From the NCBI GenBank assembly GCA_016931255.1, contig JAFGFG010000009.1, forward strand, positions 27,627 to 91,626: a stretch of 64,000 nt of DNA, given 5' to 3'. The notes below the pieces were generated by a model, which was not told the DNA's origin, did no database searches, and saw nothing but the letters and a program-made list of their open reading frames with translations. A program made the translations under genes and the position numbers. Source of the stretch: Candidatus Aenigmatarchaeota archaeon (GTDB taxonomy: Archaea; Aenigmatarchaeota; Aenigmatarchaeia; QMZP01; JAFGSV01). Below are positions 17,965-37,420 of this stretch, piece by piece. Every line of letters begins with the position of its first letter. The stretch's first letter is position 1.

Positions 17965-17968
17965 TTTT

Positions 17969-18926: not shown

Positions 18927-19538
18927 GTGAATATGATGACTAAGGAAAAAATTGTTCAGGATGGAAGAGAGGAGATTTCTGTAGCTTTCGGTCCGCAGAG
19001 TTTCAAAAAGGCTGAGAATGAGCTTTTTTCTGAGAAGATAGACCCTGTCAGGGCAAGGAGCTTCTGGGGAGAGGTTGGAAAGGCTGCAATAGAGATAGGC
19101 AAGGCTGTAGCCACAAGACCCACAAGGGCCAGGGCAAGGATTGGCGCTTATGATATTCTGGGTGTAGGTGTTGAAGAGAACAAGATTCCTTCTTACAGGA
19201 ACGCTCTCACAACCACATACACCAAGGTCGGCAATGATTACCTTCAGAAGATAACAGGAGAATTTGGTAAATTCGTCTACGGTGCAAATGACAATGGTGA
19301 TATTTACGTGAACAGGAATCTTGACATAGCTGATGAGAAGGCCACAAACCTTCACGAGTATGCGCACACGGACAAGCCTCATGCAGGCGAGACAGAGGTC
19401 GAGGCTACCGGAAGGGCTTATGCTGAATACATAGCTGATAACGACTACAGCGGCCAGATAAGGGAGCTTGCAAGAGCTGCCCTTATAGGCTTTGAAAAAG
19501 TGGAGGGAAAGTCCTTTAACGGGTTTTCCTACAATTAA
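18927..19538 (+). CDS. HExxH-motif protein (candidate zinc metallopeptidase), first gene of accessory locus
   Basis: TNLHEYAHTDKPHAGETEVEATGRAYAEYIA; HEYAH at about 19353-19367 with downstream Glu. Confidence 0.6.
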   Translation: MNMMTKEKIVQDGREEISVAFGPQSFKKAENELFSEKIDPVRARSFWGEVGKAAIEIGKAVATRPTRARARIGAYDILGVGVEENKIPSYRNALTTTYTKVGNDYLQKITGEFGKFVYGANDNGDIYVNRNLDIADEKATNLHEYAHTDKPHAGETEVEATGRAYAEYIADNDYSGQIRELARAALIGFEKVEGKSFNGFSYN

Positions 19539-19549
19539 GGGGAATTGAT

Positions 19550-19732
19550 ATGATGACAGTAAAACTTCAGAGGATGGCGAAGTACGCGAACGATGTAGAC
19601 CTGCTGATGTCACTTGTGACACAGAAGGGCCTGGACCCTTTCGCAGAAGAGAGGAAGAACAGCATGCTCTATCAGCTCGAGGCTGAGGAGATTACTGCTG
19701 ACAGCGTTAAAAATCTTATGGAGAATGCTTAA
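19550..19732 (+). CDS. small hypothetical protein (60 aa)
   Basis: Intact ORF between co-directional genes, preceded by AGGGGAATTGAT. Confidence 0.6.
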   Translation: MMTVKLQRMAKYANDVDLLMSLVTQKGLDPFAEERKNSMLYQLEAEEITADSVKNLMENA

Positions 19733-19745
19733 AGGAGTGATTACT

Positions 19746-20630
19746 ATGGGAAGACTTGACAAGCTTTACGATGAAAGCATAATGATAAAAAGGCCTATGA
19801 AGGGAACTAGAATTGGTAGCATAGGCAAGATGATTGTGAACAAAGTCGGAGAAGAGCTTGTCAAAAAAATTCCTGATTCTTCTGGTGCAGGTATTCTTAG
19901 CGGTGTTTACAATTCAGCGAAGAACGGTCTTAGGGAAACACTTCAAGCAAAGAAGCATAAGTATGGTAAGGATGCATTTGAGAATCCCATATCTGGACTT
20001 AATAAGATTGTCCAGAATGGATGGTCTCTTTATCACCTCAAGGACGGTCTCACTACAATGGACAGCGTTTACACTGTCGAGAGGGGTGGCGCAGAGTATA
20101 TGATTTATATGCAGGGAGATGGCGAGAGCTTAAGCACCGCAGATCTCTCTTACATGGCTGACAATGTGAAAGGAAAGGAAGCGGAAGTTGAAATGAGTCT
20201 CTACAACAGTCTGGAAAAGTTCAAAGACGACGACTCAGTTGAAGCTGGCGTTTACGAAGAGCTTACAGACAACGACGCAAAGCAGACGATGGATAAAAAC
20301 AGAGTACCATCTGAATACAGGCGCGCAGAGCTTTGGTTATTCGGAAAGAAGGGAAAGAGGACAGTCGTTGGCACAGCATCTGACGGTTCAAAAATAATAA
20401 GATACGAGAAGCCTTCTACAGCTGACTTTCTTAAGTATTATGGAAGAATGGATCTCATGTACAGTGCACTTTCCATGACTGCAGCTCCTGCTGAAGGTAT
20501 TCTTTCAAACCAGGCTAAAGAAAACCTCTATGTGTCAGAAGCGGTAAACAGCATAGAATCAACAAAGAGGGCCTACGGTGGTGGGGCAAATCCACTTGCG
20601 CCTCACTCAATATACAGGAATGTCGCCTAA
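19746..20630 (+). CDS. hypothetical protein
   Basis: MGRLDKLYDESIMIKRP...; preceded by GGAGTGATTACT. Confidence 0.75.
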   Translation: MGRLDKLYDESIMIKRPMKGTRIGSIGKMIVNKVGEELVKKIPDSSGAGILSGVYNSAKNGLRETLQAKKHKYGKDAFENPISGLNKIVQNGWSLYHLKDGLTTMDSVYTVERGGAEYMIYMQGDGESLSTADLSYMADNVKGKEAEVEMSLYNSLEKFKDDDSVEAGVYEELTDNDAKQTMDKNRVPSEYRRAELWLFGKKGKRTVVGTASDGSKIIRYEKPSTADFLKYYGRMDLMYSALSMTAAPAEGILSNQAKENLYVSEAVNSIESTKRAYGGGANPLAPHSIYRNVA

Positions 20631-20669
20631 AATCCAAACTTATTAATCTTTCTTTGGTCATTAATTATT

Positions 20670-21335
20670 ATGGCTGATATTCTCACTATGCTGCAGCAGC
20701 TTCTCTGCTACGGGAACTACTCGTGCATGCAGGAGTTTCAGCAGTACATGTACCAGCCTGTTGAAGGGCTGTTTTATGCGATATTCTTTCCCGTTGTTTT
20801 CATAATAATTTTCATATACATAATAGCTGGCACTGTGGGCCAGTTCAATAGGGGAATAAGACTTCTTGTGGCAATGGCTGTATTTGCTTTCATAATATTA
20901 CAGGGATGGTACGGATTCTTCATTTCACTGAGCAAGATGTGGCTCATTATCATAGTGCTTTTGGGATTCCTTTGGATGCTGCTGCATACGTTTGTCGGCA
21001 GAGGCCGTGGTGAAGGCACTGCCAAAGGAAGAACAGGCGGCCACGACGGGTTTAAAATCGCTGGTATAGATGTTGGTGGTGCGGTCTGGAATAAGCTTAC
21101 TGGCACCACCGGTGTCCAGCTTGAAACGCTTAAAGCGGATATTGATACGCTTGAATCAACACCAGTAGGCATGCACGGAATAGATGAGATGACTTCAAGG
21201 ATAAACGGAAAGCTGCTTGAGCTTAGAGGCGACCCTGCGAAGTACGGCCTTGACAAGGGTAAAGTTGACAAATTAATGCATAGATACATGGATTTATGTA
21301 AGAAAAAGGGTGTGAAGGCGAACCTTCCTAAATAG
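20670..21335 (+). CDS. small polytopic membrane protein with soluble C-terminal tail
   Basis: Several TM segments followed by a charged tail; own TATA about 30 nt upstream. Confidence 0.75.
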   Translation: MADILTMLQQLLCYGNYSCMQEFQQYMYQPVEGLFYAIFFPVVFIIIFIYIIAGTVGQFNRGIRLLVAMAVFAFIILQGWYGFFISLSKMWLIIIVLLGFLWMLLHTFVGRGRGEGTAKGRTGGHDGFKIAGIDVGGAVWNKLTGTTGVQLETLKADIDTLESTPVGMHGIDEMTSRINGKLLELRGDPAKYGLDKGKVDKLMHRYMDLCKKKGVKANLPK

Positions 21336-21343
21336 GTGATTAG

Positions 21344-21781
21344 ATGGCACTCGATTTCACAGCACTGGAAACGCTTCTCCCCTTCCTTCTGATACTCGCT
21401 GTTTCATACGGGGCTCTCGAGACAGTGGGAATGTTCAGGAACAAGGCCGTGAAGGCCATAATAGCTGTGGTTCTCGCGTTCTTTGCTATTTCCAATTCCA
21501 TGACAGTCACTTACATAAACGGCCTGCTTCCGTATGCAGCCATACTTTTCATAATTTTCTTTGGCATAGGCTTCGTCAAGAAATCACTCAGCGGTGGGCA
21601 GAAGGACAACGAGCTGATAATAATCATCATAGTGCTGGTCATGCTGTTCGTGGGCTCGCTGTACACAACGACAAGCGATTTCAATATGTACCAGTACAAC
21701 GAGCTTGTATGGATAGCCGGCATAGCTGTCATAGGTGCGATACTGTATGGCGCATACAGAATGAAAGAGCCTGTAAGGTGA
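21344..21781 (+). CDS. small polytopic membrane protein
   Basis: Hydrophobic 145-aa ORF; SD-like AGGTGAT before ATG. Confidence 0.75.
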   Translation: MALDFTALETLLPFLLILAVSYGALETVGMFRNKAVKAIIAVVLAFFAISNSMTVTYINGLLPYAAILFIIFFGIGFVKKSLSGGQKDNELIIIIIVLVMLFVGSLYTTTSDFNMYQYNELVWIAGIAVIGAILYGAYRMKEPVR

Positions 21782-21785
21782 TTTA

Positions 21786-22121
21786 ATGGCGGCATTCGAG
21801 ACCATGGTACGGTTTCTTGAGTCACTTGGTGTCTTCAATTACCTTGCTTTCGTTCTTCTTATCACAATTCTCTATTACTCTTTCGAATACATTCTCAGGA
21901 ACATAAAGGCGCTCGAAAAGAGGCAGACTCACAGGATGATACTGGCAGTAGTACTGTCAGTTGCCGTGACTGCGCTGATGTACGTCATTTTCTTTCCTGT
22001 GGCCGGCTCAGTAGGCATGGTTGTCGCTGGTATTGTTTTCATATCTGCGGTTTTCTTCCTTCTGGCTGCAACAGGCATGAGGCTCGGAGGAATGGACATT
22101 CCCTCCCTTTTTCGGAAGTAA
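21786..22121 (+). CDS. small polytopic membrane protein
   Basis: Hydrophobic 111-aa ORF; SD-like AGGTGAT before ATG. Confidence 0.72.
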   Translation: MAAFETMVRFLESLGVFNYLAFVLLITILYYSFEYILRNIKALEKRQTHRMILAVVLSVAVTALMYVIFFPVAGSVGMVVAGIVFISAVFFLLAATGMRLGGMDIPSLFRK

Positions 22122-22171: not shown

Positions 22172-22732
22172 ATGGGACTATTCGAAACAATGGTTCAGAA
22201 CATGCAGAGGATGGAGTTCTTCCAGTATCTCTTCCCATTCCTGCTCGCATTCGCTCTTCTTTACGGGCTTATGCAGTGGGCATTCAAAGAAAACCTTGGC
22301 GGTAGGAGGGTGCATACGCTCATAGCGATTATTCTTTCATTCTTCGTAATGCTTTATTCGAGCTACAACACATGGCTTTTCGCGCTCCTTACAACCACTT
22401 CAGGCATATGGCTTGGGCTTGCAACAGTTGCACTTCTGTTAGTGCTCTTCGCACAGCTCCTTGGCATAGACATAGGTTCAATGCTGAGTGGCGCCGGGGG
22501 AAGCAAATACCCATGGATAAAGTGGATAATCCTCCTCATCATTGTCTGGATCGTTCTGTCAGCGTTCCTTGGATACGCAGGTATGTCAGCATGGCTTCCA
22601 TACTGGCTTACAGGCAGTGATCTTTGGACAGTGCTTCTCGTAGTCGTCATCATAGGTGCAGTCTTCTACTTCGTTGGTGAAGACAGCGGCAAATCCAGCG
22701 GTGGCAGCGACGATAAGGCGAAACCGAGTTAA
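22172..22732 (+). CDS. small polytopic membrane protein
   Basis: Hydrophobic 186-aa ORF; TTTATAAG 30 nt upstream. Confidence 0.75.
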   Translation: MGLFETMVQNMQRMEFFQYLFPFLLAFALLYGLMQWAFKENLGGRRVHTLIAIILSFFVMLYSSYNTWLFALLTTTSGIWLGLATVALLLVLFAQLLGIDIGSMLSGAGGSKYPWIKWIILLIIVWIVLSAFLGYAGMSAWLPYWLTGSDLWTVLLVVVIIGAVFYFVGEDSGKSSGGSDDKAKPS

Positions 22733-22772
22733 TTTTTTACACTTTTTCTCTTTATTTCAGAATTAGATGAAG

Positions 22773-23870
22773 CTATCTGCTTTTGGGCGGTGCGTATCTC
22801 GGGGGCTCACCAGGCTCGTCGTCTTTCTGAGGTTCCGGTGCTTCCCTGGCCTTAGGCTTTTCAAGCGGATTTTCTGTCATAACCTTCTTCTCAGGAGTCT
22901 TCGGAGGCTCGGGAACAGGAGCAGGCGACGAAGCGAACTTCATCTTTCTTATGGATTCAATCATGGGGTTCAGCGAGCTTTTTACAACCTCTTCAATGGA
23001 GTCGATTCTTGCGTTGGTTTCCTCTATGCTTTCTTTCTGAATACCTATATCCTTTTTCAGGTTCATCACCTCATCTGGTGATGATGCCCCGCTCTGGGAT
23101 GATGAATTCTTCATATCACTTTCAATTTTCTCAAGTCTTTCTTCCAGATCGCTGAACCTGACAGCTATTTCTTTCATTTTTTCATCAGCTATCTCTTCAG
23201 TGAGCTCCTCGATGTCTCTTCTTCTGCGCTCCTTGAGTATCCTTGTTCTGTCATCCTTGTCCTTTGGTAGCGGCGATCTTGCAAAAGGCAGGGGTTCGAG
23301 TTCATCCCTTGGCACGGGAGGCGGACCCATTCCGGTGGAGTCTTCCATCCTGTCAATAAAAGCATCAGGTCCCATTTTCCTTTCTTTCGGCACATCGTCG
23401 ATGTCATCCATGTCGTCAAGGTCATCGTCCCACTTGGTTGGCGCAAACTGATTCTTTGGTGCAGCAGGCGGCATATTGAATCCCCTTGGTGAAAAAGGCT
23501 CGTCACCCGTCATATCATCAATTTCCGGTTGCTGAGGCGATGGCTGTTCTGGAGACATTGGCGGTATTTGTCTGGGCTGAAGCGGCCTCTGCGGCTCCTG
23601 TGGCATTGCAGGCATCTGTGGAACTCCCTGGGCCGAGCCAGAAGAACCTGACCTCATGGCGTCCTTCATTGCGCGGTCAACCTCTATGGGGCTGAATCCG
23701 TCCTCTCTGAGTGTTTTTACAATCTCCGGTTCCGAGAAGCCCTGAGAAGACATGGAAAGAACTTTCTGAGTGGGGACACCCCTCCCCCCGGCGGCTGGTG
23801 CCGGTGGCGCATTACCCTTCTTTTTCCCCAATCCTAACATAATCAGTACCGCATTTATAATTACTTTCAT
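22773..23870 (-). CDS. Pro-rich, partly disordered protein with C-terminal coiled coil
   Basis: GFSEPEIVKTLREDGFSPIEVDRAMKDAM segment, Pro-rich linker, heptad-like RFSDLEERLEKIESDMKN. Confidence 0.7.
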   Translation of the reverse strand: MKVIINAVLIMLGLGKKKGNAPPAPAAGGRGVPTQKVLSMSSQGFSEPEIVKTLREDGFSPIEVDRAMKDAMRSGSSGSAQGVPQMPAMPQEPQRPLQPRQIPPMSPEQPSPQQPEIDDMTGDEPFSPRGFNMPPAAPKNQFAPTKWDDDLDDMDDIDDVPKERKMGPDAFIDRMEDSTGMGPPPVPRDELEPLPFARSPLPKDKDDRTRILKERRRRDIEELTEEIADEKMKEIAVRFSDLEERLEKIESDMKNSSSQSGASSPDEVMNLKKDIGIQKESIEETNARIDSIEEVVKSSLNPMIESIRKMKFASSPAPVPEPPKTPEKKVMTENPLEKPKAREAPEPQKDDEPGEPPRYAPPKSR

Positions 23871-23883
23871 CTCTACTTAAAGA

Positions 23884-24270
23884 TTACTCAGGTGCCTTAT
23901 CTGGCTGCCCTGCAAGCCGTGGGAGGATTGACTCGAACAGCTTTACTGTCTCCTCAACCCTCTTCAGCTCACTCTTCTTTACCATGAACTGGAGCTGCTT
24001 CACAACCTCCTTCAGTGTGTTATTGACTGTATTCGTTTTCTCGTCGAGAGCTGTCATCTTTTCTTCAATACCCTTCAGCCTGACATCAAGTGATTCAAGC
24101 TTTCCTGAGAACGATTCATCAAGAGAGCTTATCCTGCTGGTGAGAATCCTTTCCCTTTCCTCAATGAGCCTGAGCCTCTTTGTGTTGTCGTTGACCCTTC
24201 CGACGATTTCGTTGACTATCGGCGCTCCGCCCTTCTTCTTTCCTGAAGACTGCTCATTCATGACAGGCAT
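23884..24270 (-). CDS. small coiled-coil protein
   Basis: 128 aa, heptad-like pattern; adjacent to the previous minus-strand coiled-coil gene. Confidence 0.7.
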   Translation of the reverse strand: MPVMNEQSSGKKKGGAPIVNEIVGRVNDNTKRLRLIEERERILTSRISSLDESFSGKLESLDVRLKGIEEKMTALDEKTNTVNNTLKEVVKQLQFMVKKSELKRVEETVKLFESILPRLAGQPDKAPE

Positions 24271-24355
24271 AATATCAAACTCCGGTTATTTTTATTTAGT
24301 CTGCCACAATATAAAAGTACACAGAGATTTGAACAGCAGTTCAGGTGACCGGTTT

Positions 24356-26602
24356 ATGGCTTCAGGCGAATACACGTATGATGAAGACGAGCAGAAGCTC
24401 AGGCTCAATTATCTCGGTTCTGCTTTTGGCGCGAGTGTGGAGGATTATGCCGAATGCATGGCAGATGTCATAGACAAGATTCTCGAGGTCAAGAGCGTCA
24501 GGACAATAATACTGACCAAGGACAGGGAATACGAGTACGGTCCGGACCAGACTAAGATGCTTGTGGAGATATCCAATGTCATAGAGGATGTCGTCCGTGA
24601 GAGGCTCACAGGAAGGATAAAGGCAGCTGACAACCTCCAGAAGCGAATGATACCCGAGATGAACGCGCGTGTTCAGGAGATTGTGCTGAACCTCCTGAGG
24701 CGGGACCCCATAGGCGCCTATGTCGAGGTCATACGCGAGATGAGGCGCGTCAAGATAAAGGCAAAGCATACCAATCAGAAGAGCGTTTATGATTTCTACG
24801 TGGACTATCTGAAGAATGTTCTCAATGTGCTGAAGACCAAGCTTGAGGCAACACAGATAATAAAGCTCGCAAAGCCTCACATAGCCGGATATACGCAGGG
24901 CGACAGGTCTCTCTACCGTGAGATGTTCGTTCCGAGCATACGGCCTAACTTCATGCTCACCCGTTACATGATAACACCTCCTGAGAACGGCAGGTCTGTC
25001 AAGAGGTACAATGTAGGCGACACGGAAGTGGAGATTTTCAAGCTTCCTGACAGGGCTGAATACTTCTACTATGTTCTGCCTCCCGAGTTCATTCTCAGCG
25101 AAGAGAAGTATGCTGTGCTGGATTCCGCGCGGAGGTACATGGCTACCCATAGGCCGAAGGATGCTGAATTCGTCAGAACAGGAAAAATACGCGAGGTCTT
25201 CTTTAGCATAGGAAGGGACATGATACGGGAAGTGGCCGACCAGCAGAGGGTGCACCTGACATCAAAGGACATCGAGCAGCTTGCCACCATACTTACAAGG
25301 TATACAGCAGGCCTTGGCGTTCTCGAGATACTGCTTGCTGACGAGAAGATTCAGGACGTGTACGTCAACTCTCCTGTTGAGTCACAGCCCATACTGATAA
25401 ACCATTCGGAGTTTGAGGAGTGCAGGACCAATCTCATACCGACGCAGGATGATGCCGAGGCATGGGCTACAAGGCTGAGGATGCAGTCTGGAAGGCCTCT
25501 GGACGAGGCCAATCCTGTATTGGACACTGATGTGTCTGTTCCGGGAGGGAATGCAAGGTTCTGCGTAATCACGAGAACGCTGTCTCCGCATGGCCTTGGC
25601 TTTGCCATAAGGAGGCACAGGGACAAGCCATGGACGCTGCCGCTTTTCATAAACGCCAAGATGCTCACGCCTCTGGCTGCCGGCACACTTTCATTCCTCA
25701 TAGACGGCACAGCGAGCATGCTGGTCGCAGGTGGGAGGGGCGCAGGTAAGACATCCATGCTTGCGAGCATAATGCTTGAGATACTGCCGAAAACAAGGAT
25801 TGTCACCATAGAGGATACACTTGAACTGCCTGTGGACCAGCTCAGGGACATAGGATATAACATCGAGCGCCTGAAGTCCCGTTCTGTCCTGACAATGGTG
25901 GAAACAGAAGTGGCCTCGGACGAGGCTCTCAGGACTGCGCTAAGACTTGGTGATTCTGCGCTGGTTGTGGGCGAAGTCAGGTCAACGGAAGCCAGAGCCC
26001 TGTACGAAGCCATGAGAATAGGTGCGCTTTCCAATGTGGTTATGGGCACAATCCACGGCGAATCAGCTTATGGTGTCTTTGACAGGGTCGTGAATGACTT
26101 GGAAGTTCCCATGACATCATTCAAGGCCACTGACATAATTCCCATATGCAAGAGCCTCCGTTCTGCTGACGGTCTCCACCGTTTCAGGCGAATGACAGAG
26201 ATAACAGAAGTCCGCAAGAAATGGGAAAAGAACCCTGACAAGGAAGGCGGCTTCGTCAACCTTTTCGAATACTCCGCAAAAGAGGATGAGATGAAGCCTA
26301 CGGATACACTTGTCAACGGCGAATCCGAGACACTGAACAGGATTTCAAGCTACGTCAGGGAATGGCACGGCGACTGGGCAGCTGTGTGGGAAAACATAAA
26401 ACTCAGGGCTGACATCAAGAAGGCCATGGTGGAAATGAGCATCAGGACGAAACGGCCTGAACTGATGGAGGCGGAATGGTGCGTGAAGTCGAATTCCATG
26501 TTCCACCTTTTCTCAGAAATCACGCAAAAGGATGTCGGGGCAGTTGAGGCAAAGACAGTCTACGATGAATGGCTCAAGTGGTTCAGGAGCAGCATAAGGT
26601 AA
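24356..26602 (+). CDS. type II/IV secretion system ATPase (GspE/TadA/VirB11 superfamily)
   Basis: Walker A VAGGRGAGKTSMLASIM, Asp box TIEDTLELP, Walker B LVVGEVRSTEARALYEAM, His box GTIHGES. Start reset from ORF track to MASGEYTYDEDE. Confidence 0.92.
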   Translation: MASGEYTYDEDEQKLRLNYLGSAFGASVEDYAECMADVIDKILEVKSVRTIILTKDREYEYGPDQTKMLVEISNVIEDVVRERLTGRIKAADNLQKRMIPEMNARVQEIVLNLLRRDPIGAYVEVIREMRRVKIKAKHTNQKSVYDFYVDYLKNVLNVLKTKLEATQIIKLAKPHIAGYTQGDRSLYREMFVPSIRPNFMLTRYMITPPENGRSVKRYNVGDTEVEIFKLPDRAEYFYYVLPPEFILSEEKYAVLDSARRYMATHRPKDAEFVRTGKIREVFFSIGRDMIREVADQQRVHLTSKDIEQLATILTRYTAGLGVLEILLADEKIQDVYVNSPVESQPILINHSEFEECRTNLIPTQDDAEAWATRLRMQSGRPLDEANPVLDTDVSVPGGNARFCVITRTLSPHGLGFAIRRHRDKPWTLPLFINAKMLTPLAAGTLSFLIDGTASMLVAGGRGAGKTSMLASIMLEILPKTRIVTIEDTLELPVDQLRDIGYNIERLKSRSVLTMVETEVASDEALRTALRLGDSALVVGEVRSTEARALYEAMRIGALSNVVMGTIHGESAYGVFDRVVNDLEVPMTSFKATDIIPICKSLRSADGLHRFRRMTEITEVRKKWEKNPDKEGGFVNLFEYSAKEDEMKPTDTLVNGESETLNRISSYVREWHGDWAAVWENIKLRADIKKAMVEMSIRTKRPELMEAEWCVKSNSMFHLFSEITQKDVGAVEAKTVYDEWLKWFRSSIR

Positions 26603-26637
26603 TTTTTTTCTTTAAAGAAAACGAACAAATAATTAAC

Positions 26638-28737
26638 ATGTCGTTTTTCAGCAGGAAGAAGAAGGCTCCTCAGGCACCTGCTTACAGCACCGGCCAGCTT
26701 GATCCCAGAATGATAAACATCTCATCAAGGGAGTACAGGCTTTACCGCAGCAAGTCGGAATTAAGGCTGAACTGGTATGAGCAGCTGGCCAAGTTCGCTG
26801 TCGGCATAATAAATGTGAGTTTTGACAAGAAGACCACGGATGACATAAATGCCGCAATAGACTTCACAGGACTGCGCATAAAGCCGAATGCGCCGACAGC
26901 TCTGTTCCTGATGAGCATTATATTCTTCTCGTTCCTCGGAGGATTCCTGTTTGCGCTGAGGATAGTCCCGACAGCCTATGGAGTGATTGCATCAGTGATA
27001 CTCGGGCTTGCTGTCGGGTACTTCCTGATGTCGTATCCGAAAAGCCATATGAAGACGCTCCGCATACAGGCAAGCTCGCAGGTCGTCCTTGCGATACTCT
27101 ACATGGTGGTGAGCATGAGGATATCGCCGAATGTCGAGCGCGCGCTGAGGTTCACGTCGTCCAACATATCAGGCATGCTTGCATGGGACATGAGAAGGCT
27201 CCTGTGGGACATAGAGATGGGAAAATACTACTCAGCCAACGAAGCGCTTGCGAATTACATCGTCAAGTGGAAGCCTGAGAACGAGGAATTCTCGGAAGCG
27301 CTGAGAATGATAGTGGATTCGCAGAGCCAGATCCAGGAAAAGGCTGAAAAGACTTTGGACGAGGCGCTCAGGGTTGTCCTTGAAGGGACGAGGGACAGGA
27401 TGAAGCACTATGCGCAGGACCTTCAGATGCCTGTCACCATGATTCACATGATGGGCATAGTCCTTCCGATACTCGGCTCTGTGATGGCTCCGATGGCAGC
27501 AATTTTCCTGTCAGACATGATTACGCCATGGCATTTCCTTGCCGGATACGACATACTGCTGCCCATTCTGCTTGTGTGGTTCATAAACAACACGCTGAGC
27601 AAGCGTCCTGTGACATTCTCAAAGATAGACGTCTCGCAGCATCCGAGCCTTCCGCCGCCGGGAAGCTTCATGATCAGGAGCGGTAAGAAGAGGATAATAG
27701 TGCCCGCATTACCCATAGCGCTCCTTGTGGGGGCCCTCATACTAATAATGCCTGTGCTGTATTTCGCTGAGCATTCAGAATTTCTCATAGTCCCGATGGT
27801 CGATGACGGCAGTGGAAACATGGTGCCGTCTGAAATCCAGGACCCGGCTCCGGATACGACTCTCCTTATGTCCATACTGATAACAGTAGGAGCCGGAGCG
27901 TCGCTGTCCATATACTTCCTCCTCTCCAATCTCCAGCGCTCGCGAGTCGAGGCCACTGTATACAAGATGGAATCTGAATTTGAACTGGCTCTTTTCCAGC
28001 TGGGCAACAGGATATCCGGCGGCACACCTCTGGAGATAGCTGTTGAGAAGGCTGCTGTGGATGTGAAGGACATGGAGATTTCCAATCTCTTCCAGATTGT
28101 CCTGAGGAACATGCGCAACTTCGGGATGACATTCGAGAACGCGCTGATGAATCCCCAGAGCGGCGCGCTGAGATTCTACCCGAGCAGGCTGATACAGAAC
28201 GTGATGAGAACCATAACAGACACCGCCAGGAAGGGCGTGCAGTTCGCTTCGGAATCCATGCTCACTGTATCCAAGTACCTGAAAAGCGTGAGGGAGACAC
28301 AGGAATACATGAGGACGCTGCTTTCTGAAACCACGAGCAGCATGCAGTTCCAGGCTTATGGAATGGCACCGCTCGTGAGCGGCCTCATAGTGGCAATGTC
28401 CAGCGTCATCATACAGATCATAGGATTCCTCGGCACCAGGCTCAACGAGTTCGGCCTGCAGGACAGCTTCGGCATAGACCCGAGCTCTATACTGGGGTCA
28501 TCAAGTGCTGTGACCCCCGCGATGTTCCAGCTCATAATGGGAACGTACCTCATAGAGGTGATAATAATCCTTGCCATGTTCGTGACCAAGGTCAACAGGG
28601 GGGATGACAAGTCGAGCCAGTGGCTGCTGGCCGGAAAGATGATATTTATAGCTGTGATAATATACTCCATGGTTGCAATAGGCTCAAGTATGATGTTCGG
28701 CAGCATGATAGAGGATGCGATGAGGACACTCGCGTAA
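26638..28737 (+). CDS. type II secretion F-like (TadC/ArlJ) platform protein, two fused F-like halves
   Basis: TM clusters with GspF-like helical domains; second half FQLGNRISGGTPLEIAVEKAA...; follows the ATPase gene. Confidence 0.85.
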   Translation: MSFFSRKKKAPQAPAYSTGQLDPRMINISSREYRLYRSKSELRLNWYEQLAKFAVGIINVSFDKKTTDDINAAIDFTGLRIKPNAPTALFLMSIIFFSFLGGFLFALRIVPTAYGVIASVILGLAVGYFLMSYPKSHMKTLRIQASSQVVLAILYMVVSMRISPNVERALRFTSSNISGMLAWDMRRLLWDIEMGKYYSANEALANYIVKWKPENEEFSEALRMIVDSQSQIQEKAEKTLDEALRVVLEGTRDRMKHYAQDLQMPVTMIHMMGIVLPILGSVMAPMAAIFLSDMITPWHFLAGYDILLPILLVWFINNTLSKRPVTFSKIDVSQHPSLPPPGSFMIRSGKKRIIVPALPIALLVGALILIMPVLYFAEHSEFLIVPMVDDGSGNMVPSEIQDPAPDTTLLMSILITVGAGASLSIYFLLSNLQRSRVEATVYKMESEFELALFQLGNRISGGTPLEIAVEKAAVDVKDMEISNLFQIVLRNMRNFGMTFENALMNPQSGALRFYPSRLIQNVMRTITDTARKGVQFASESMLTVSKYLKSVRETQEYMRTLLSETTSSMQFQAYGMAPLVSGLIVAMSSVIIQIIGFLGTRLNEFGLQDSFGIDPSSILGSSSAVTPAMFQLIMGTYLIEVIIILAMFVTKVNRGDDKSSQWLLAGKMIFIAVIIYSMVAIGSSMMFGSMIEDAMRTLA

Positions 28738-28764: not shown

Positions 28765-31653
28765 ATGATTCTCAAGGGAGTCCTCGGAACTGAGATGACG
28801 CTGGGGAGCTTCACCAAGCTGCTCATGGTCGTCTTTGTAATGATTGGATTCACGCTCTTCATAACAGGCGTTGCCACGAACATGAACGAGACGACCAGCA
28901 AGGCCTGCCAGAAATATCCGGAGCTTCCTTTCTGCAGTGGAAGTGAAGATGACATTTCAGCATTAAATGACAAGATTGCGGTGCATTCCACACAGGCTCT
29001 CGCATGCGCGATAAAAAGCGAGTGGCTTGGAAGGTCGCAGGAATGCGCCGTTGGAATAAACGACCTTCGCAATAGTGACGATCTCGCACAGCTTTCTGGA
29101 ATGGACCTCAGTGACGAGGATTTCTACATTCCCAGTGAATTTGCCAAAGTCGAATGCCATGCGGTAACCACAGTCGAGAATCCCGGAAAATCCAGAATAA
29201 TAGAATATGATGGAGGCATAGCCAGCGACAATGTCTGCTACCAGTACGTCGAGGGCACAGGATGGATGTGGAGTGACTGTGATGAGGAACTCCTTCCATT
29301 GTCAGACCAGCACCCCCCCGGCGTGAACAATCTTCCCCTTGTCCACGACTATTTCAGGGACAATGTCATTGCTTTCGGTAATACAAAGACCGAATCGTAC
29401 AATTACCTTCTGGGGCTTTTCGAGGGAACGCTGAACGGCAATAACTATGCAGTGCTTGACGACAGCGGGAAGAGGCTTGTTTACAATGATGACACCGAGA
29501 AGATATCCAACGACAGGATAAGAGTGTGGCATTCCATGTCATTGGAGGAATATGAAAGCTCTTCATGGGCAGATAAGATTGCCAATGGAAAAGGAGGCTT
29601 CTGGGAAGGAGATGACGACAGAATATTCGTGGAATTGATTGAAAGGTCTGGTCCTATTTATATGACATCGGGAACAGTGATCCATAAGCTTTATGAGCAA
29701 CTGGATTATTACACTCCGGGAACTGCAGTCACGCTTGCAACCACGACATGCAAGGTGAGCGACTTCTACCTGCCCCAGGATTTTGACCAGATAAGGATAT
29801 TGGGAATTACCATGGATGAGCCGAGAGCATGGGTCGCAGGTTTCGGGGACCCTGAATACATCGTGTACTGGCAGGACTTCCCCCAGGGAGAAGACTATTC
29901 ATGGACAAGCCTCGGCACATGGCTTGATTCTGCACTTTTCGTCTTCTTTGCAGGAGCTCCTCTTGGCGCAATGGTAAAAGGCACAAAATACCTTATCAAG
30001 GGGGTCGGGAAGACAGTGATAAGCGAGGCAGGCGGCGCATTGGCATCAAAAGGAGATGATGTGATTTCATCCATGTTCAAAACGACCTCAGCAACAGACG
30101 AATCCATCCAGTATATAATATACGAAGAGGGCGTGACCAAGGCAACAAGAAGGGCAGTCCTCACAGAAGCTGTCGAGAAGGGGTTCTTTTCCAAGGTTGT
30201 CACCAATATGAACAGCTACTACAAGGGACCGAGCACCACGTGGCTGTTCACCAAGGCTGGCGTGCTGACCGGGGCTGCCTGGGCGGCTGCCTACATTGAC
30301 AGCCTCAATGAGAAGTTTATGAAGCAGAAGTCATCGATGGTCCTGAAGATTCCATTCGCTGACCCGCAGCTTTTCATGATAGAAGAGATGGCATCAGCGC
30401 CTGCTGACACGTCTTATGACATATTCGGACCGGATACGTATCTCGGCCGCGAATCCGGCTCATACCCGCTTGGCATTGTCAGGCCTGTGATGCTCGACAA
30501 GACAAGCACCATCACGCTTACGGATGGAGGAGAAGGCCTTCAGAAGGATACGCTGTTCTATCTTGCATCGCCATGCCTTGCAGACCTTGACATAAAAAGG
30601 GAAACCATCTACTGCAGCAAGTATCTGTATAACTCAGCTGACCAGACATTCACGTGTTCAGACCCTATCTCAAGGGAAAGCGCGGAGAAAATGAAGGCAC
30701 TTGGTTTCGAGGGTGTCAAGCCTTGCGGCTCTGCGCCTATAACTCTTGACGCTTTCCAGAACAACAGGCTTTTCAATGACAACAACAACGACGGAAAGTG
30801 GGATGAGGTTGTTGTCTATGGGCTGATAAATGAGATAGACTGGCTGAAGATAAGGGATATAGACTTCGACGGGACCTTCGACGGCTATGAAGCCAAGATA
30901 GGCAACAATATCATTGTATCCACTGGTGAGAAAACAGGAAAGATAGACATGGGGCAGGACGGCACGTTCGACTACACGTTCACCATCGTTGACAGGACAT
31001 ATGAAGTTGCCGGTTATACAACAGAGATGGAGATAAAGGACATGTCCGGCAATTCTGTCAGCAATTCATGGTCATATCGAATGCAGGCGAAGGACCTCGT
31101 TGTATTCAGTGCGGTGGACAAGGAAAACATACTTCTGGGGCTTCCCATCGCCAGCGGCACCAATGTTGAAGATATGGAATTCACATTCCTTCACGGGACA
31201 AGTGCTGAATTCAAGGACCCAGCAGACCCCGGCCCGCATCCGCTGAAGATAACGGATACCACAGGTGACGGTAAGATAGACACATTTTCAATGGGAAGGA
31301 TGAGGCTTCTTGTCAGGGACACAACAGGGGACGGCTACTGGAATCGCTATGATGAGGACGATGACGGTCATCCTGATGTCTACGATTACGACAGGGAATA
31401 CGGCACCATATACAGCCAATACTGCAGTATAGAAGGCATCACGATCACACCTGAGCTGAAGGAAATAGGCAAGGGGAATAATTTTTGCTACACCAGAATA
31501 AAAGAAGGACAAGCCACAGCAATAATGGTTGGGTCTGCTGTTTTTGGAATTGTACTGGAGCAGTTTACAGGTGGCGTAGCGTCAGCAATCGTGGTAGGCA
31601 TAGTCAATACTGGAATCGCGTATGCACAGATGCAGGTCAAGAACTGGCCGTGA
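28765..31653 (+). CDS. large membrane-associated protein with EF-hand/thrombospondin-type-3-like Asp-rich repeats
   Basis: N-terminal TM (LLMVVFVMIGFTLFITGVA), repeats NDNNNDGKWDEV, DIDFDGTFDGYE, DTTGDGKIDTF, DTTGDGYWNRYDEDDDGHPD; C-terminal hydrophobic segment. Confidence 0.75.
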   Translation: MILKGVLGTEMTLGSFTKLLMVVFVMIGFTLFITGVATNMNETTSKACQKYPELPFCSGSEDDISALNDKIAVHSTQALACAIKSEWLGRSQECAVGINDLRNSDDLAQLSGMDLSDEDFYIPSEFAKVECHAVTTVENPGKSRIIEYDGGIASDNVCYQYVEGTGWMWSDCDEELLPLSDQHPPGVNNLPLVHDYFRDNVIAFGNTKTESYNYLLGLFEGTLNGNNYAVLDDSGKRLVYNDDTEKISNDRIRVWHSMSLEEYESSSWADKIANGKGGFWEGDDDRIFVELIERSGPIYMTSGTVIHKLYEQLDYYTPGTAVTLATTTCKVSDFYLPQDFDQIRILGITMDEPRAWVAGFGDPEYIVYWQDFPQGEDYSWTSLGTWLDSALFVFFAGAPLGAMVKGTKYLIKGVGKTVISEAGGALASKGDDVISSMFKTTSATDESIQYIIYEEGVTKATRRAVLTEAVEKGFFSKVVTNMNSYYKGPSTTWLFTKAGVLTGAAWAAAYIDSLNEKFMKQKSSMVLKIPFADPQLFMIEEMASAPADTSYDIFGPDTYLGRESGSYPLGIVRPVMLDKTSTITLTDGGEGLQKDTLFYLASPCLADLDIKRETIYCSKYLYNSADQTFTCSDPISRESAEKMKALGFEGVKPCGSAPITLDAFQNNRLFNDNNNDGKWDEVVVYGLINEIDWLKIRDIDFDGTFDGYEAKIGNNIIVSTGEKTGKIDMGQDGTFDYTFTIVDRTYEVAGYTTEMEIKDMSGNSVSNSWSYRMQAKDLVVFSAVDKENILLGLPIASGTNVEDMEFTFLHGTSAEFKDPADPGPHPLKITDTTGDGKIDTFSMGRMRLLVRDTTGDGYWNRYDEDDDGHPDVYDYDREYGTIYSQYCSIEGITITPELKEIGKGNNFCYTRIKEGQATAIMVGSAVFGIVLEQFTGGVASAIVVGIVNTGIAYAQMQVKNWP

Positions 31654-31902: not shown

Positions 31903-32214
31903 ATGAAAGGACTTTCGATGACGCTGAGCATAGTCATTGTGGCTATAGTTCTTCTCGTGACAGCCTTGGTTGTACTTACGATATTCGGCGGGCAGATGTC
32001 AAGATTTCTGAGCATTTTTGGTGGAGTTCAGGATGAGGCAGTTCTGCAGAGTGCATGTAATCAGAGATGTGCATCCTATTGCATGGGTCATCTGAATGAC
32101 AACCTGAATGCATATTCTTGGACAAGCATGGGTTCAGTTAAGGATGCCAATGGAAAAGATGCACTGTGTTCCGATGTAATGAATGGAATATCAGACCAGT
32201 GCACATGCCTGTAA
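31903..32214 (+). CDS. pilin-like single-TM, Cys-containing protein
   Basis: MKGLSMTLSIVIVAIVLLVTALVVLTIFGGQM N-terminus; TATA about 30 nt upstream. Confidence 0.68.
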   Translation: MKGLSMTLSIVIVAIVLLVTALVVLTIFGGQMSRFLSIFGGVQDEAVLQSACNQRCASYCMGHLNDNLNAYSWTSMGSVKDANGKDALCSDVMNGISDQCTCL

Positions 32215-32250: not shown

Positions 32251-32904
32251 ATGAAGGCTTCATTTCCCGGCATCAATACGTGGCTATGGACGATTCTTAC
32301 CATAATAGTGGTCGCAATGGCTCTGTACTGGGCAATGGGCCAGTTCGACAACATGGAACTGTCAAAAGCAACAGGAAGCACGGACCTTGCTATAGACACG
32401 GTCGTCTACTCAGAGGCGTATCCCCAGGTTTCCCAGAGCCAGATGGTAAGATACCTTCAGGATAACGGTGGGGAGCAGCTGAAGGACAAGGGACTTGCAT
32501 TTTACAGGCTCGGTGTCCAGTACAATACTGACCCGGCATTCGCTGTGGCTGTCTCAAGGAAGGAGACATCGCTTGGGAAGGACACGTGCCAGCACATAAG
32601 CAGTGACTGCAACAACTTCTTCTGCATCAAGGACACTACTGGAAATAGTCCCTGCGGCATATGGGCATCATATGCAACGCCTGAGGACAGCATTGATGCG
32701 TTCTACAAGCTTATTGAGTATTACAAGGAAAGGGGGCAGGATACCATAAGCGAGATTGCATGCGGTCCTGGCTCAGGGTTCAGCCACAGCTCAGGTGATT
32801 ACTGCTACTGCGAGAAGGGAGGCTCTTTCTGCCCTACATGGGTAAGCGGCACGTCAAGCGTGCCTGCATTCACAGCGGAAATCCGTAACTATATGGCAGT
32901 ATGA
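32251..32904 (+). CDS. TM-anchored glucosaminidase/lysozyme-like (GH73-type) protein
   Basis: N-terminal TM then AFAVAVSRKETSLGKD...CNNFFCIKDTTGN...WASYATPEDSIDAFYKLIEYY, matching the GH73 ES/T-G and NN-F-IK / SPEES pattern. Confidence 0.75.
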   Translation: MKASFPGINTWLWTILTIIVVAMALYWAMGQFDNMELSKATGSTDLAIDTVVYSEAYPQVSQSQMVRYLQDNGGEQLKDKGLAFYRLGVQYNTDPAFAVAVSRKETSLGKDTCQHISSDCNNFFCIKDTTGNSPCGIWASYATPEDSIDAFYKLIEYYKERGQDTISEIACGPGSGFSHSSGDYCYCEKGGSFCPTWVSGTSSVPAFTAEIRNYMAV

Positions 32905-32930: not shown

Positions 32931-33047
32931 ATGGGAAAGATGAAGGCCATAATCGCTGACATGGGAATGGGTATGATAGAGCTTATCCTGACAATAGCAG
33001 TCATAGCGATAATAACAGGCTATGTCATAATGATGATGTCGTCTTAA
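32931..33047 (+). CDS. 38-aa pilin-like TM peptide
   Basis: MGKMKAIIADMGMGMIELILTIAVIAIITGYVIMMMSS; AT-rich TATA-like upstream (GATATATTAG). Confidence 0.5.
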   Translation: MGKMKAIIADMGMGMIELILTIAVIAIITGYVIMMMSS

Positions 33048-33705: not shown

Positions 33706-34140
33706 ATGGAAAGCAGCAGAAGCATGGTTGCGGTTATATTCGCCCTGATACTCGTAATGATATACTGGGTTGCGTGCGTATACGTACTTAACCCAATCCT
33801 TCGCGCGGAAAGCTCGTATGTTGAGCAGAAGATGTCATTCTACATAGATACGATGTCTTCTGTGAGCAGCGGCTCAGTCAAAGTGGAGATACCAAAGAAC
33901 ACTGTCAGCGCAATAAGCGTTGAGAAGCTCGCTAAAGGTGATTACGATGACTACACGATTCCTGAAGACGGCTGGTACGTGGTGGTAGCATACAGGATTG
34001 CAGGAACTCTGAACAAAGGCGTAAGCAGGATAAACTCGTACCCTGATGACGACAATATCAGAAAGACATTTACGTCCCCTGAAGACTTCTGCATAATAAA
34101 GAATGCGGACATGGATTACGCGGTGGTGGGAAAATGCTGA
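33706..34140 (+). CDS. single-TM pilin-like protein
   Basis: MESSRSMVAVIFALILVMIYWVACVYVL N-terminus. Confidence 0.68.
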   Translation: MESSRSMVAVIFALILVMIYWVACVYVLNPILRAESSYVEQKMSFYIDTMSSVSSGSVKVEIPKNTVSAISVEKLAKGDYDDYTIPEDGWYVVVAYRIAGTLNKGVSRINSYPDDDNIRKTFTSPEDFCIIKNADMDYAVVGKC

Positions 34141-34967
34141 AAGGGCAGCTGGACATAGACATAGAGTTCATGGGAGGAACCATAATATTCGTGTTCTTCG
34201 CGATGATATTCTTCTCGATGCTTCTCTTCCCGATAGTCGCCAACAGCAGCGTGACATCAAGGGTTCACAATTCAGTGGACCAGCTCTCTTTCTCAAACCT
34301 AGCTGAGGCTTACATAGAGAGGGACTACGCCAACGAGAACGGAGTGCCGGATTTCCTCAGGATGTCTCTGGACACGAACCTGCTTAAATCGTTCCGTAAT
34401 TTTGTGCTTTTCGAGCAGATTCCGTCAGGAAGGTTCATATTTCCAAAATATTCAGTGATGAGCATGAATCCGGATGATTCGATCGGGCATGATACATACG
34501 GCATAACGTGGACTGGTTTCGAGAACACAAAGCCCGGAGACATACTGATACCTGTCGGCAAGATTTCGCTTGTCGATGTCCACAGGAATGGCTCGCTTGT
34601 CATAATCGATGTGTATGATTATCCCAGATGCTCGACAGGCACTTCAGAAAGAACCGGCCTCACAGTGTATCCGCTGTGTTCATCAGTGTCTGAAGCCAGT
34701 ATCGTAGACTCGGAATCAGCACGCGACGAACTCATACTTTCAGTCATAAACGGCGCATTTCCCGGCACGGTATTCTTCATGCGCGCAGCCAAAGACATAA
34801 TGGTTTCTGACATCATGCAATCCTTCAAGGGATATGTGAGCGCGACGTGCGAAGACAGCGGGGAACATAATGTTTGCATAAGAAAATTTAGTGATTACAC
34901 TACTGCCACGAGGATTCATGTTGAAATTACTCCAGGAGGTTTCTTTTGGTATGAAAGCGGCGATTAA
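34134..34967 (+). CDS. single-TM pilin-like protein
   Basis: FMGGTIIFVFFAMIFFSMLLFPIVANSS near the N-terminus; overlaps the upstream stop (ATG within AAATGCTGA). Confidence 0.68.
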   Translation: MLKGQLDIDIEFMGGTIIFVFFAMIFFSMLLFPIVANSSVTSRVHNSVDQLSFSNLAEAYIERDYANENGVPDFLRMSLDTNLLKSFRNFVLFEQIPSGRFIFPKYSVMSMNPDDSIGHDTYGITWTGFENTKPGDILIPVGKISLVDVHRNGSLVIIDVYDYPRCSTGTSERTGLTVYPLCSSVSEASIVDSESARDELILSVINGAFPGTVFFMRAAKDIMVSDIMQSFKGYVSATCEDSGEHNVCIRKFSDYTTATRIHVEITPGGFFWYESGD

Positions 34968-36006
34968 CCTCATAGGCCTGGTGACAATAGGCACAGCACT
35001 GGCAGCTGTTATAATCATGATACACGGTGTTCCGCATGCATCTGAGATGATCAAGGTGAACTCAGAGACATCGGCCTATATCAACGTCAACGACGAGACA
35101 TCGAAGCTCATGCCGATACTCGAATCAGGCAACATCAGCTTTGCTGCAATAGACCAGCTTGCATGCGATGTCCTCGGAATCACATACCACTATCAGGATG
35201 ACTACATCGATGCTGTACTCAAATCCATGGATGCAGGAATCATAGTTTACGCAGGAGGTATGGAGAAGAAAACATACGGCAATGAGAAGAGCGACAAACT
35301 GTTCGCTGATATACCTCTTCCCGGAGGGAAAATCGGAAACATCGCGCTCATGGTCGACATACCGCGGTCAATTTCAGAGGCAAGCTTCGGCTCCAATTGG
35401 ATATGGCCGCTTGAGACACTCACCGGTATGCATGTCAGTCACTGCTACGGCGAATACAGAGAGCTCAGCGACGGCTCAACCTATACGCATTCCGGTGTGG
35501 ACCTTGGCGGTAATATCGGAGACAATGTGCATGCCGTGGCTGACGGAGAAGTCATATTCGTATGCGATAATGATGAGAGAGAACTGACAGATGAGGAGAA
35601 GAACGCACGCATAAAGGGTAACTGCAGCGGATACGGTAACAACATAATAATAAAGCACGCTGGCCTGTATGCCAGATATTCGCATCTGCACACGGAAAAT
35701 GGCGTGCTCGTCTCAGTAGGGGACATAGTCACGCAGAATCAGATTATTGGCAGGATGGGAAGCACGGGCCGTTCCTTCGGCGCGCATCTCGATTTCAAGG
35801 TGTATTCATACGAACCCTATGCCAATGGCGCGTCAGGATATGATGCCAATATAGACCCACTCTGCATGTACACGCCTGAATATCTTAAGAACGTAGTGAA
35901 GCTCACGTACGAGGAAAATGACAAGGACTGCCAGCAGTCGAAGCTGTGCATAAAGTACAGGCCGTCCATTTACACAGACATTGTCGAGGAGGACCTTACA
36001 ATATAG
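34951..36006 (+). CDS. TM-anchored M23/LytM-like peptidase-domain protein
   Basis: THSGVDLGGNIGDNVHAVADGEVIFV...GYGNNIIIKHAGLYARYSHLHTENGVLVSVGDIVTQNQIIGRMGSTGRSFGAHLDFKV; start could alternatively be 34918. Confidence 0.88.
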   Translation: MKAAINLIGLVTIGTALAAVIIMIHGVPHASEMIKVNSETSAYINVNDETSKLMPILESGNISFAAIDQLACDVLGITYHYQDDYIDAVLKSMDAGIIVYAGGMEKKTYGNEKSDKLFADIPLPGGKIGNIALMVDIPRSISEASFGSNWIWPLETLTGMHVSHCYGEYRELSDGSTYTHSGVDLGGNIGDNVHAVADGEVIFVCDNDERELTDEEKNARIKGNCSGYGNNIIIKHAGLYARYSHLHTENGVLVSVGDIVTQNQIIGRMGSTGRSFGAHLDFKVYSYEPYANGASGYDANIDPLCMYTPEYLKNVVKLTYEENDKDCQQSKLCIKYRPSIYTDIVEEDLTI

Positions 36007-36014
36007 GTGATGCT

Positions 36015-36845
36015 ATGCGAAAAGGAAATGTTGCTAATATAGTGTATGCAGCGGGGTTGGTTATAATGTTTATTATAAGCGTTTATTACATTCTTCCTGC
36101 TCTCTCGAACACTGATAAGAATCCTGTCATGGTGATGGTGGACAATACAGTTTACCTACTCAAGGATTCCGCAGAGGTCGCGAAGTCATTTGTGGACAAT
36201 TCAGCCCGGTATTCACTCTATCAGGCGGTGTATTCCAATTCACTGAAAGGCGGCATGAATCAGACAGTAAATGCTGTCAGCATAGGCGGTACAACATATG
36301 AGCTATGGTATGACGGTGCAGATGTCTCGCCTGACGAGGTGAGAATAAAGGAAGAGCTGCGCAAGACTTTCAGTCATTGGTTCTCCATGTATGTGGGGCG
36401 CAGTGTGATAAAGGCATTTACACCCGTCATGCCACCGAAATACAACGATTTCACATTCAGGAATGACGGATACTACCATACAGGTGTTTTTGCTGAATCG
36501 GATGATGTCATGCGTGCACAGATGACAATGGAGAATGGCGATGCGCTCACAGTGTCTGTGAATGCTGACATAAACATGAGCCTTCCAATACCTTACTTCC
36601 TGCTTGTCAGTGAAGGCAGGGAATTCAAGGACGACATAAAGGGCCAACTGACAAACTGCAGCTCAGAACTTACGAAATCTTACGAAAAGCCAGAACTTAT
36701 TTTCTCTTCAATGGCAACAATTTCCGATGGATATTGCATAGTCGCTGTTGATATCACGAGCAAGAGGGAATTTTTAGTATGGGACGGAAGTGCGTCTTTC
36801 AAACCCATAACCCTCAGATTCGCCATGCGCCAGTCAATGAGCTGA
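36015..36845 (+). CDS. single-TM pilin-like/secreted protein
   Basis: MRKGNVANIVYAAGLVIMFIISVYYILPAL; SD-like AGGTGATGCT before ATG. Confidence 0.7.
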   Translation: MRKGNVANIVYAAGLVIMFIISVYYILPALSNTDKNPVMVMVDNTVYLLKDSAEVAKSFVDNSARYSLYQAVYSNSLKGGMNQTVNAVSIGGTTYELWYDGADVSPDEVRIKEELRKTFSHWFSMYVGRSVIKAFTPVMPPKYNDFTFRNDGYYHTGVFAESDDVMRAQMTMENGDALTVSVNADINMSLPIPYFLLVSEGREFKDDIKGQLTNCSSELTKSYEKPELIFSSMATISDGYCIVAVDITSKREFLVWDGSASFKPITLRFAMRQSMS

Positions 36846-36934
36846 GAAACATTTAAAAAACGAGATTTCAACAATCTATTACTAAGGCTACCGTCATGGT
36901 AGATACAGCAATACAGTACTTGGAGGTGTTAGTA

Positions 36935-37420
36935 ATGGCAGAAGAACAGAAGATACTCGACAGCGTAATCGGGGAAAACAAGCCGGCTGATGAAGAAACA
37001 CAGCCGGAGACAGAAGAAGAGGTTCATGAAGAGCCTGTAGAGGAAAAACCAGAAGAATTACCAGAGGAAGCGCCTGAAGAAAAGACAGTGGAGCAGCCCG
37101 TCAAAGAAAAGGTATCACCAAAGCCCGAGGAAAAGGCTCCGGTGAGGGAGAAAATCGGCGAGAACGTGATATTCGTGGGGAAGAAGCCTACAATGAGCTA
37201 TGTGCTTGCCGCAATCACCCAGTTCTCCGACGGGTTTGATGAAATACACATCAAGGCACGCGGAAGGAGCATAAGCACCGCAGTCGATGTCGCAGAGGTT
37301 GTGAAGAACCGTTTCGTTCAGGGAGCCAGGACAGATGTAACCATCGGAACCCATGAGATAATCGACGACCGGAAGAACAAGCTTAATGTATCCACAATAG
37401 ACATAGCAATCAGGAAGTAA
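36935..37420 (+). CDS. albA: Alba-family chromatin protein with acidic N-terminal extension
   Basis: C-terminal Alba domain VIFVGKKPTMSYVLAAITQFSDGFDEIHIKARGRSISTAVDVAEVVKNRF; about 70-aa Glu/Pro-rich N-terminus. In-frame upstream start at 36896 possible. Confidence 0.88.
   Translation: MAEEQKILDSVIGENKPADEETQPETEEEVHEEPVEEKPEELPEEAPEEKTVEQPVKEKVSPKPEEKAPVREKIGENVIFVGKKPTMSYVLAAITQFSDGFDEIHIKARGRSISTAVDVAEVVKNRFVQGARTDVTIGTHEIIDDRKNKLNVSTIDIAIRK

What the first reader, a model, noticed from the sequence alone, without database searches (positions are those of the whole stretch)
32251..32904. Membrane-anchored GH73-type glucosaminidase in an archaeon
The translated frame shows a TM anchor followed by AFAVAVSRKETSLG (putative catalytic Glu at 32563-32565), CNNFFCIK and YATPEDSIDAFYKLI, matching the bacterial GH73 pattern. 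The six-plus cysteines suggest an extracellular disulfide-stabilised form.
Basis: partly seen in the sequence, partly recalled or inferred. Interest (0 to 1): 0.7.

Follow-up and report, generated by a model that had tools for sequence, protein, structure and literature searches.

The report
Archaeal pilus locus with wall-cutting enzymes
A tiny archaeon that has no bacterial-type cell wall of its own carries a pilus-like surface machine whose parts bear interchangeable enzymes for cutting bacterial cell walls, which suggests that these archaea breach or attack bacteria by contact.

Summary
Window 32251-32901 encodes a 217-aa protein with an N-terminal TM helix and a GH73 N-acetylglucosaminidase domain. 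It matches PF01832 at E 1.4e-5, just under the cut-off. The predicted fold is LytB-like, and Glu105 aligns with LytB's catalytic Glu585. The organism is a DPANN archaeon (Aenigmatarchaeota) with no detectable Mur ligase or penicillin-binding transpeptidase.

The larger finding is the locus. The gene lies in a conserved type-IV-filament-like cluster: secretion ATPase, TadC-like platform, then a row of small single-TM proteins with basic-Gly leaders. The row also holds an M23 endopeptidase. Across the order the same TM-scaffold slots carry different peptidoglycan modules: M23, M15_4, GH73, SLT, amidases, YkuD, PG_binding_1, or none. M23 sits directly beside scaffold "A2" in 18 of the 21 order genomes that have M23.

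Best reading: a filament or secretion machine whose subunits display swappable peptidoglycan-cutting heads against bacterial cells. Enzyme fold, cluster and swapping are shown; filament assembly, activity and target are inferred. Single archaeal hydrolases were known; I found no description of this arrangement.

The parts
32251..32904 (+). GH73-slot protein, 217 aa: TM helix (residues 6-30), linker, GH73 domain (about 84-160, with cysteine-rich C-terminal extension); catalytic Glu105 at 32563-32565
24344..26602 (+). VirB11/TadA-like secretion ATPase (coding start taken about 24344)
   Evidence: PF00437 T2SSE E 3.5e-16, 59.3 bits; conserved in G001, G002, G004, G006
26569..28737 (+). TadC/FlaJ-like membrane platform protein, duplicated (722 aa)
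   Evidence: PF00482 T2SSF only E 0.008, 16.5 bits, below cut-off; next to the ATPase; 65-74% identity to family orthologues
28765..31653 (+). Large fast-evolving surface protein (962 aa), possible adhesin
   Evidence: no Pfam match; same place in relatives
31903..32214 (+). Small single-TM Cys-containing pilin-like protein (S103), leader MKG
32931..33047 (+). 38-aa mini-pilin-like ORF (…DMG/MGMIELILTIAVIAI…)
   Evidence: read from the sequence; similar small ORFs in L012 and L016
33078..33692 (+). Single-TM pilin-like protein S204
33706..34140 (+). Single-TM pilin-like protein S144 (this slot carries an SLT transglycosylase in G008 and G022)
34134..34967 (+). Single-TM pilin-like protein S277 with conserved leader MLKGQ (this slot carries an SLT-like domain in G002)
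34951..36006 (+). TM scaffold plus M23 endopeptidase (this slot carries M15_4 in G002/G003, GH73 in G014, nothing in G004/G006/G009/G021/G023/G025); likely start ATG 34951
   Evidence: PF01551 E 7.3e-19
36015..36845 (+). TM scaffold A2 (no enzyme here; carries PKD-YkuD-Amidase_3 in G001, SLT in G021, SLT+Amidase_2 in G076, SLT+C39_2 in G077, PG_binding_1 insert in G012/G014)
22172..24270 (.). Conserved neighbours: polytopic TM186 (22172-22729 +), coiled-coil-like CC365 (22776-23870 -) and CC128 (23887-24270 -)
   Evidence: conserved with the ATPase in G001, G002, G004, G076, G077
36896..37420 (+). Alba-domain gene marking the right border (enolase follows at 37534)
   Evidence: PF01918 E 3.7e-20; conserved border

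Best explanation
The GH73 protein is one subunit of an Aenigmatarchaeal type-IV-filament-like machine. ATPase and platform assemble a set of single-TM, pilin-like proteins. Some of these subunits carry catalytic heads that cut peptidoglycan: here GH73 (cuts the glycan chain next to GlcNAc) and M23 (cuts the peptide cross-links). The archaeon appears to make no peptidoglycan, so the substrate is the wall of neighbouring bacteria. The heads would be held at the surface or at a filament tip and would open the wall of a contacted bacterium, to kill or feed on it or to pass material. Shown: domain identities, GH73 fold, conserved catalytic Glu, conserved cluster, swapping of enzyme modules between the same scaffold slots, absence of Mur ligase and PBP transpeptidase matches. 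Inferred: filament assembly, extracellular display, enzyme activity, bacterial target, contact dependence.
For: GH73: PF01832 match, LytB-like fold, Glu105 aligned with LytB Glu585. M23 in the same row. Gene order kept in G001-G004 and, with more divergence, across the order. Scaffold slots carry different peptidoglycan modules in different genomes: M23, M15_4, GH73, SLT, Amidase_2, Amidase_3+YkuD, C39_2, PG_binding_1, or none. A2 is found in 39 of the 41 order genomes listed; M23 lies within about 0.5 kb of A2 in 18 of 21 M23-bearing order genomes. Canonical M23 motifs in most relatives. Secretion ATPase over the Pfam cut-off; prepilin peptidase in the genome; [KR][GA] before the TM helix in 88 of 103 slot proteins with a TM helix against 50 of 122 other N-TM ORFs. 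No Mur ligase or transpeptidase match in the genome, with controls positive. Both PGH matches of this genome (M23, GH73) are in this cluster; none for SLT, Amidase_3 or M15_4 elsewhere in it.
Against: The window GH73 scores below the curated Pfam cut-off. A2, the only scaffold modelled, has no convincing PDB match, so a pilin fold is not shown. The platform protein matches T2SSF only weakly. The window M23 has HLDF where HLHF is usual, which may change a zinc ligand. Some scaffolds carry no enzyme at all, so the machine works without it in those species. MAG data only; no expression or activity data.
Confidence: 0.6

Rival explanations
1. The enzymes are simple membrane-anchored surface hydrolases used to scavenge peptidoglycan debris as food or to deter neighbours; the nearby ATPase and platform serve an ordinary adhesion pilus and do not display them.
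For: Each protein has its own TM anchor, so filament assembly is not needed for surface display. The pilin fold of the scaffold is not confirmed.
Against: The same scaffolds occur without enzymes in the same locus, so the scaffold belongs to the machine and the enzyme is the add-on. Order-wide linkage to the row. Leader signature of the whole row.
Confidence: 0.2
2. The enzymes act on a non-peptidoglycan target: glycans or surface proteins of an archaeal host, pseudomurein, or the archaeon's own envelope, for pilus passage.
For: Cultivated DPANN live on archaeal hosts (PMC11291902 abstract). GH73-like and M23-like folds can in principle cut other substrates, as PMC12352652 cautions.
Against: Unrelated peptidoglycan specialists (M15_4, Amidase_2, Amidase_3, YkuD, SLT, PG_binding_1) converge on the same slots; only peptidoglycan has all the bonds that these families are known to cut.
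Confidence: 0.15
3. GH73 and M23 are recent transfers (for example from phage or bacteria) or assembly contaminants without a settled role.
For: Patchy catalytic domains: GH73 is reduced to a 42-aa anchor in G004.
Against: Same position and order in several independently assembled genomes with an Alba gene, and enolase in the genus, beside it; assembly contamination estimate 0.04%; catalytic residues conserved.
Confidence: 0.05

Closest known systems
Myxococcus xanthus Kil system (Tad pilus with interchangeable minor-pilin tips; PMC12075869)
   Same: A Tad-like ATPase/platform machine with minor pilins that expose variable C-terminal domains, used for contact-dependent killing of bacteria.
   Different: Kil tips carry domains of unknown function, and the word peptidoglycan does not occur in the main text of that paper. 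Here the heads are recognisable peptidoglycan enzymes, in an archaeon, and pilus formation is not shown.
Secreted archaeal peptidoglycan hydrolases Woldo (M23) and Danwoldo (glucosaminidase) of Halogranum salarium (PMC12352652)
   Same: Archaeal M23 and PF01832 enzymes aimed at bacterial walls; patchy, shuffled domains.
   Different: Those are soluble modular proteins with PG_binding_1 domains, scattered in genomes and often on plasmids or small contigs. Here the enzymes are anchored heads on dedicated scaffolds in a chromosomal pilus-like locus; that survey required a binding domain in the same protein, so the window proteins would have escaped it.
Woesearchaeota 'vampiristic' lytic transglycosylases (PMC9723730)
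   Same: DPANN archaea with peptidoglycan-degrading genes read as predatory.
   Different: Different phylum; single GH23 genes; pili are not mentioned in the main text.
Peptidoglycan hydrolases of conjugative type IV secretion systems, e.g. PrgK of pCF10 (PMC11323569)
   Same: A secretion machine carrying its own wall-cutting subunit.
   Different: In bacteria the enzyme opens the machine's path through bacterial walls, the donor's included; this archaeon has no such wall.
GH73 autolysins LytB and Autolysin E
   Same: Fold, catalytic Glu, NNxF and downstream motifs.
   Different: Short, cysteine-rich domain with a TM anchor and no cell-wall-binding repeats.

Membership tests
GH73 (PF01832) | Significant profile match | tested here: met
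   E 1.4e-5, but 26.2 bits against cut-off 30.2; orthologue G003 32.0 bits over cut-off
GH73 (PF01832) | Catalytic glutamate at the end of the conserved helix | tested here: met
   Glu105 invariant in six homologues and aligned with LytB Glu585 (7pj4 is the E585Q mutant)
GH73 (PF01832) | Lysozyme-like fold of the GH73 type | tested here: met
   Model pLDDT 76; Foldseek best hits are all GH73, LytB E 1.6e-5, prob 1.00; TM-scores about 0.5
GH73 (PF01832) | N-acetylglucosaminidase activity on peptidoglycan | not testable with these tools
   needs enzyme assay
Type IV filament superfamily | Secretion ATPase (T2SSE/VirB11 family) | tested here: met
   PF00437 59.3 bits, cut-off 24.9
Type IV filament superfamily | Platform protein (T2SSF/TadC) | tested here: inconclusive
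   E 0.008, below cut-off; position and TM layout fit
Type IV filament superfamily | Prepilin peptidase in the genome | tested here: met
   PF01478 29.6 bits, cut-off 26.5, elsewhere on the same contig
Type IV filament superfamily | Subunits with prepilin (class III) leaders | tested here: inconclusive
   [KR][GA] before the TM in 88/103 slot proteins against 50/122 control ORFs; cleavage not shown, rows are related
Type IV filament superfamily | Pilin fold of the subunits | tested here: inconclusive
   A2 model has TM helix plus second helix plus beta domain, pLDDT 90.7, but no credible PDB match; other slots not modelled
Kil/Tad tip complexes | Flp major pilin, TadZ, secretin/CpaB parts and KilLMN homologues | not tested
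   no search made with these families
Modular archaeal PGHs of PMC12352652 | Catalytic plus cell-wall-binding domain in one protein | tested here: not met
   No binding domain in the window GH73 or M23 protein; PG_binding_1 sits in the A2 scaffold of G012/G014 instead

The most novel reading that the evidence does not exclude
An order-wide class of archaeal type-IV-filament machines whose subunits are functionalised with exchangeable peptidoglycan hydrolases and binding domains: a contact weapon or feeding device of host-dependent archaea against bacteria, which would imply that many Aenigmatarchaeota prey on or parasitise bacteria and not only archaea.
Probability: 0.45. Interest if true: 0.88.

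Novelty: new variant of a known kind. Interest (0 to 1): 0.75.

Why it matters
Hosts of Aenigmatarchaeota are unknown, and all cultivated DPANN depend on archaeal hosts (PMC11291902 abstract). A conserved machine built around bacterial-wall enzymes in an organism without such a wall points to bacteria as partners or prey and makes that testable: the catalytic domains can be expressed and assayed singly. It also offers a possible archaeal parallel to the Kil predation pilus, with heads whose chemistry is already known.

Tried and rejected
phmmer of the single protein against the PDB gave only chance matches to gp120; the profile search was needed. The genome-contig scan found a single locus, so relatives came from the genome search. 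The fold search with scaffold A2 gave no usable match, so the pilin fold is left open. A contamination or phage origin was considered and rejected on synteny and the low contamination estimate. No viral library or PHROGs search was run. The large surface protein slot has no Pfam domain in six relatives. No tree of the catalytic domains was built, so donors and number of transfers are unknown. In the literature, two surveys of archaeal type IV pili or dark matter do not mention peptidoglycan enzymes and further searches found none for archaeal pili; the library is open-access papers only, so this is not proof of absence.

Full report
1. The finding itself. ORF 32251-32904 is open and starts with ATG. 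PF01832 matches at E 1.4e-5, 26.2 bits, below the curated cut-off of 30.2; the orthologue in G003 passes (32.0), and two more distant homologues score 34.7 and 53.9. A profile of six homologues finds pneumococcal LytB (E 8e-8), a phage cell-wall hydrolase and Autolysin E in the PDB, with the archaeal Glu105 on LytB's catalytic Glu585 (7pj4 is the E585Q mutant). The AlphaFold2 model (pLDDT 76) is GH73-like, with LytB first at E 1.6e-5. So the identification holds; enzymatic activity is not tested.

2. The organism. The window lies in a 0.93-Mb assembly, 93% complete, 0.04% contamination. The same-genus genome G002 has a 64,496-base contig, the length of JAGGXP010000020.1 of Ca. Aenigmatarchaeota AUK155. 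Mur ligase and penicillin-binding transpeptidase profiles find nothing in it while controls ring. It is therefore very likely unable to make peptidoglycan.

3. The locus. Upstream lie a secretion ATPase (PF00437) and a duplicated TadC-like platform (weak T2SSF match). Then come, all on the plus strand and closely spaced, a large surface protein, S103, GH73, a 38-aa mini-pilin-like ORF, S204, S144, S277, the M23 protein and A2, followed by Alba and enolase genes. This order is kept in G001, G002, G003 and G004. In G003 the ATPase was not found next to the platform. Parts of the order are recognisable across the order, with the ATPase, platform and A2 also together in other families of the phylum (G055, G076, G077, G095). 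A2 was found in 69 of 158 phylum genomes and in 39 of the 41 genomes of the order listed.

4. Swapping of enzyme heads. The M23 slot carries M23 in the window and G001, M15_4 in G002 and G003, GH73 in G014, and only the scaffold in G004, G006, G009, G021, G023 and G025. In G008 and others M23 is inserted inside the scaffold and not at its end: the scaffold profile aligns in two pieces around it. S277 ends in an SLT-like domain in G002 (20.1 bits by hmmscan, just under the cut-off of 21.3; 21.4 bits by genome search). S144 carries SLT in G008 and G022. A2 carries PKD-YkuD-Amidase_3 in G001, SLT in G021, SLT+C39_2 in G077 and SLT+Amidase_2 in G076, and a PG_binding_1 insert in G012 and G014. GH73 is cut down to a 42-aa anchor in G004. 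M23 lies close to A2 in 18 of 21 M23-bearing genomes of the order (the binomial figure printed there treats genomes as independent, which they are not). The conserved scaffold is the machine part and the enzyme is the exchangeable part.

5. Are the subunits pilins? A prepilin peptidase is in the genome. Slot proteins have a basic residue followed by Gly/Ala before the TM helix in 88 of 103 cases against 50 of 122 control ORFs (rough test, related sequences). Against this, the A2 model (pLDDT 90.7) shows a TM helix, a second long helix and a beta domain but no PDB match worth the name. Pilin nature is likely but not shown.

6. Mechanism. The simplest reading is a type-IV-filament-like machine that displays peptidoglycan-cutting heads on the outside of the archaeal cell and uses them on bacteria in contact. 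The window organism would combine a glycan-strand cutter (GH73) with a peptide cutter (M23). Convergence of unrelated peptidoglycan families on the same slots is the main argument for the substrate. Whether the aim is killing, feeding, attachment or transfer cannot be told from sequence. A caution: the window M23 reads HLDF where HLHF is usual, as in G001 and G027, while most relatives keep HLHF.

7. What is known. Archaeal peptidoglycan hydrolases that kill bacteria are published (PMC12352652), also DPANN 'vampiristic' transglycosylases (PMC9723730). Tad pili with interchangeable tips for predation are published for Myxococcus (PMC12075869). I found no report that joins these: swappable peptidoglycan enzymes on the subunits of an archaeal pilus-like locus. 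I rate it a new variant of a known kind.

Noticed in passing
window 32931-33047 (+): A 38-aa ORF with a type-IV-pilin-like leader and hydrophobic helix between GH73 and S204; similar small ORFs in L012 (near 14304) and L016 (near 9647). Could be the major pilin.
   Followed up: partly
L017:10278-13763 (-): In G012 a 1162-aa multi-TM protein with zinc-ribbon-like stretches ends in a GH73 domain, about 112 kb from any A2 match on its contig.
   Followed up: partly
G001 contig C83, M23 at 11032-11268 and GH73 at 17895-18191: A second island in G001 with M23 and GH73 matches, on another contig than the pilus-like locus.
   Followed up: no
L083:8959-10614 (-): The A2 protein of G055 ends in an endostatin/DUF1554-like domain (possibly C-type-lectin-like), suggesting adhesive heads in other families.
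   Followed up: no
window 18927-22121 (+): ORFs upstream of the machine: 18927-19538 with a HEYAH metalloprotease-like motif and several polytopic membrane proteins of unknown function, two of them related to genes beside the cluster in relatives.
   Followed up: partly
L012 / L079 (G003): In the single-contig genome G003 no ATPase ORF was found upstream of the platform protein, unlike in G001, G002 and G004; cause not examined.
   Followed up: no
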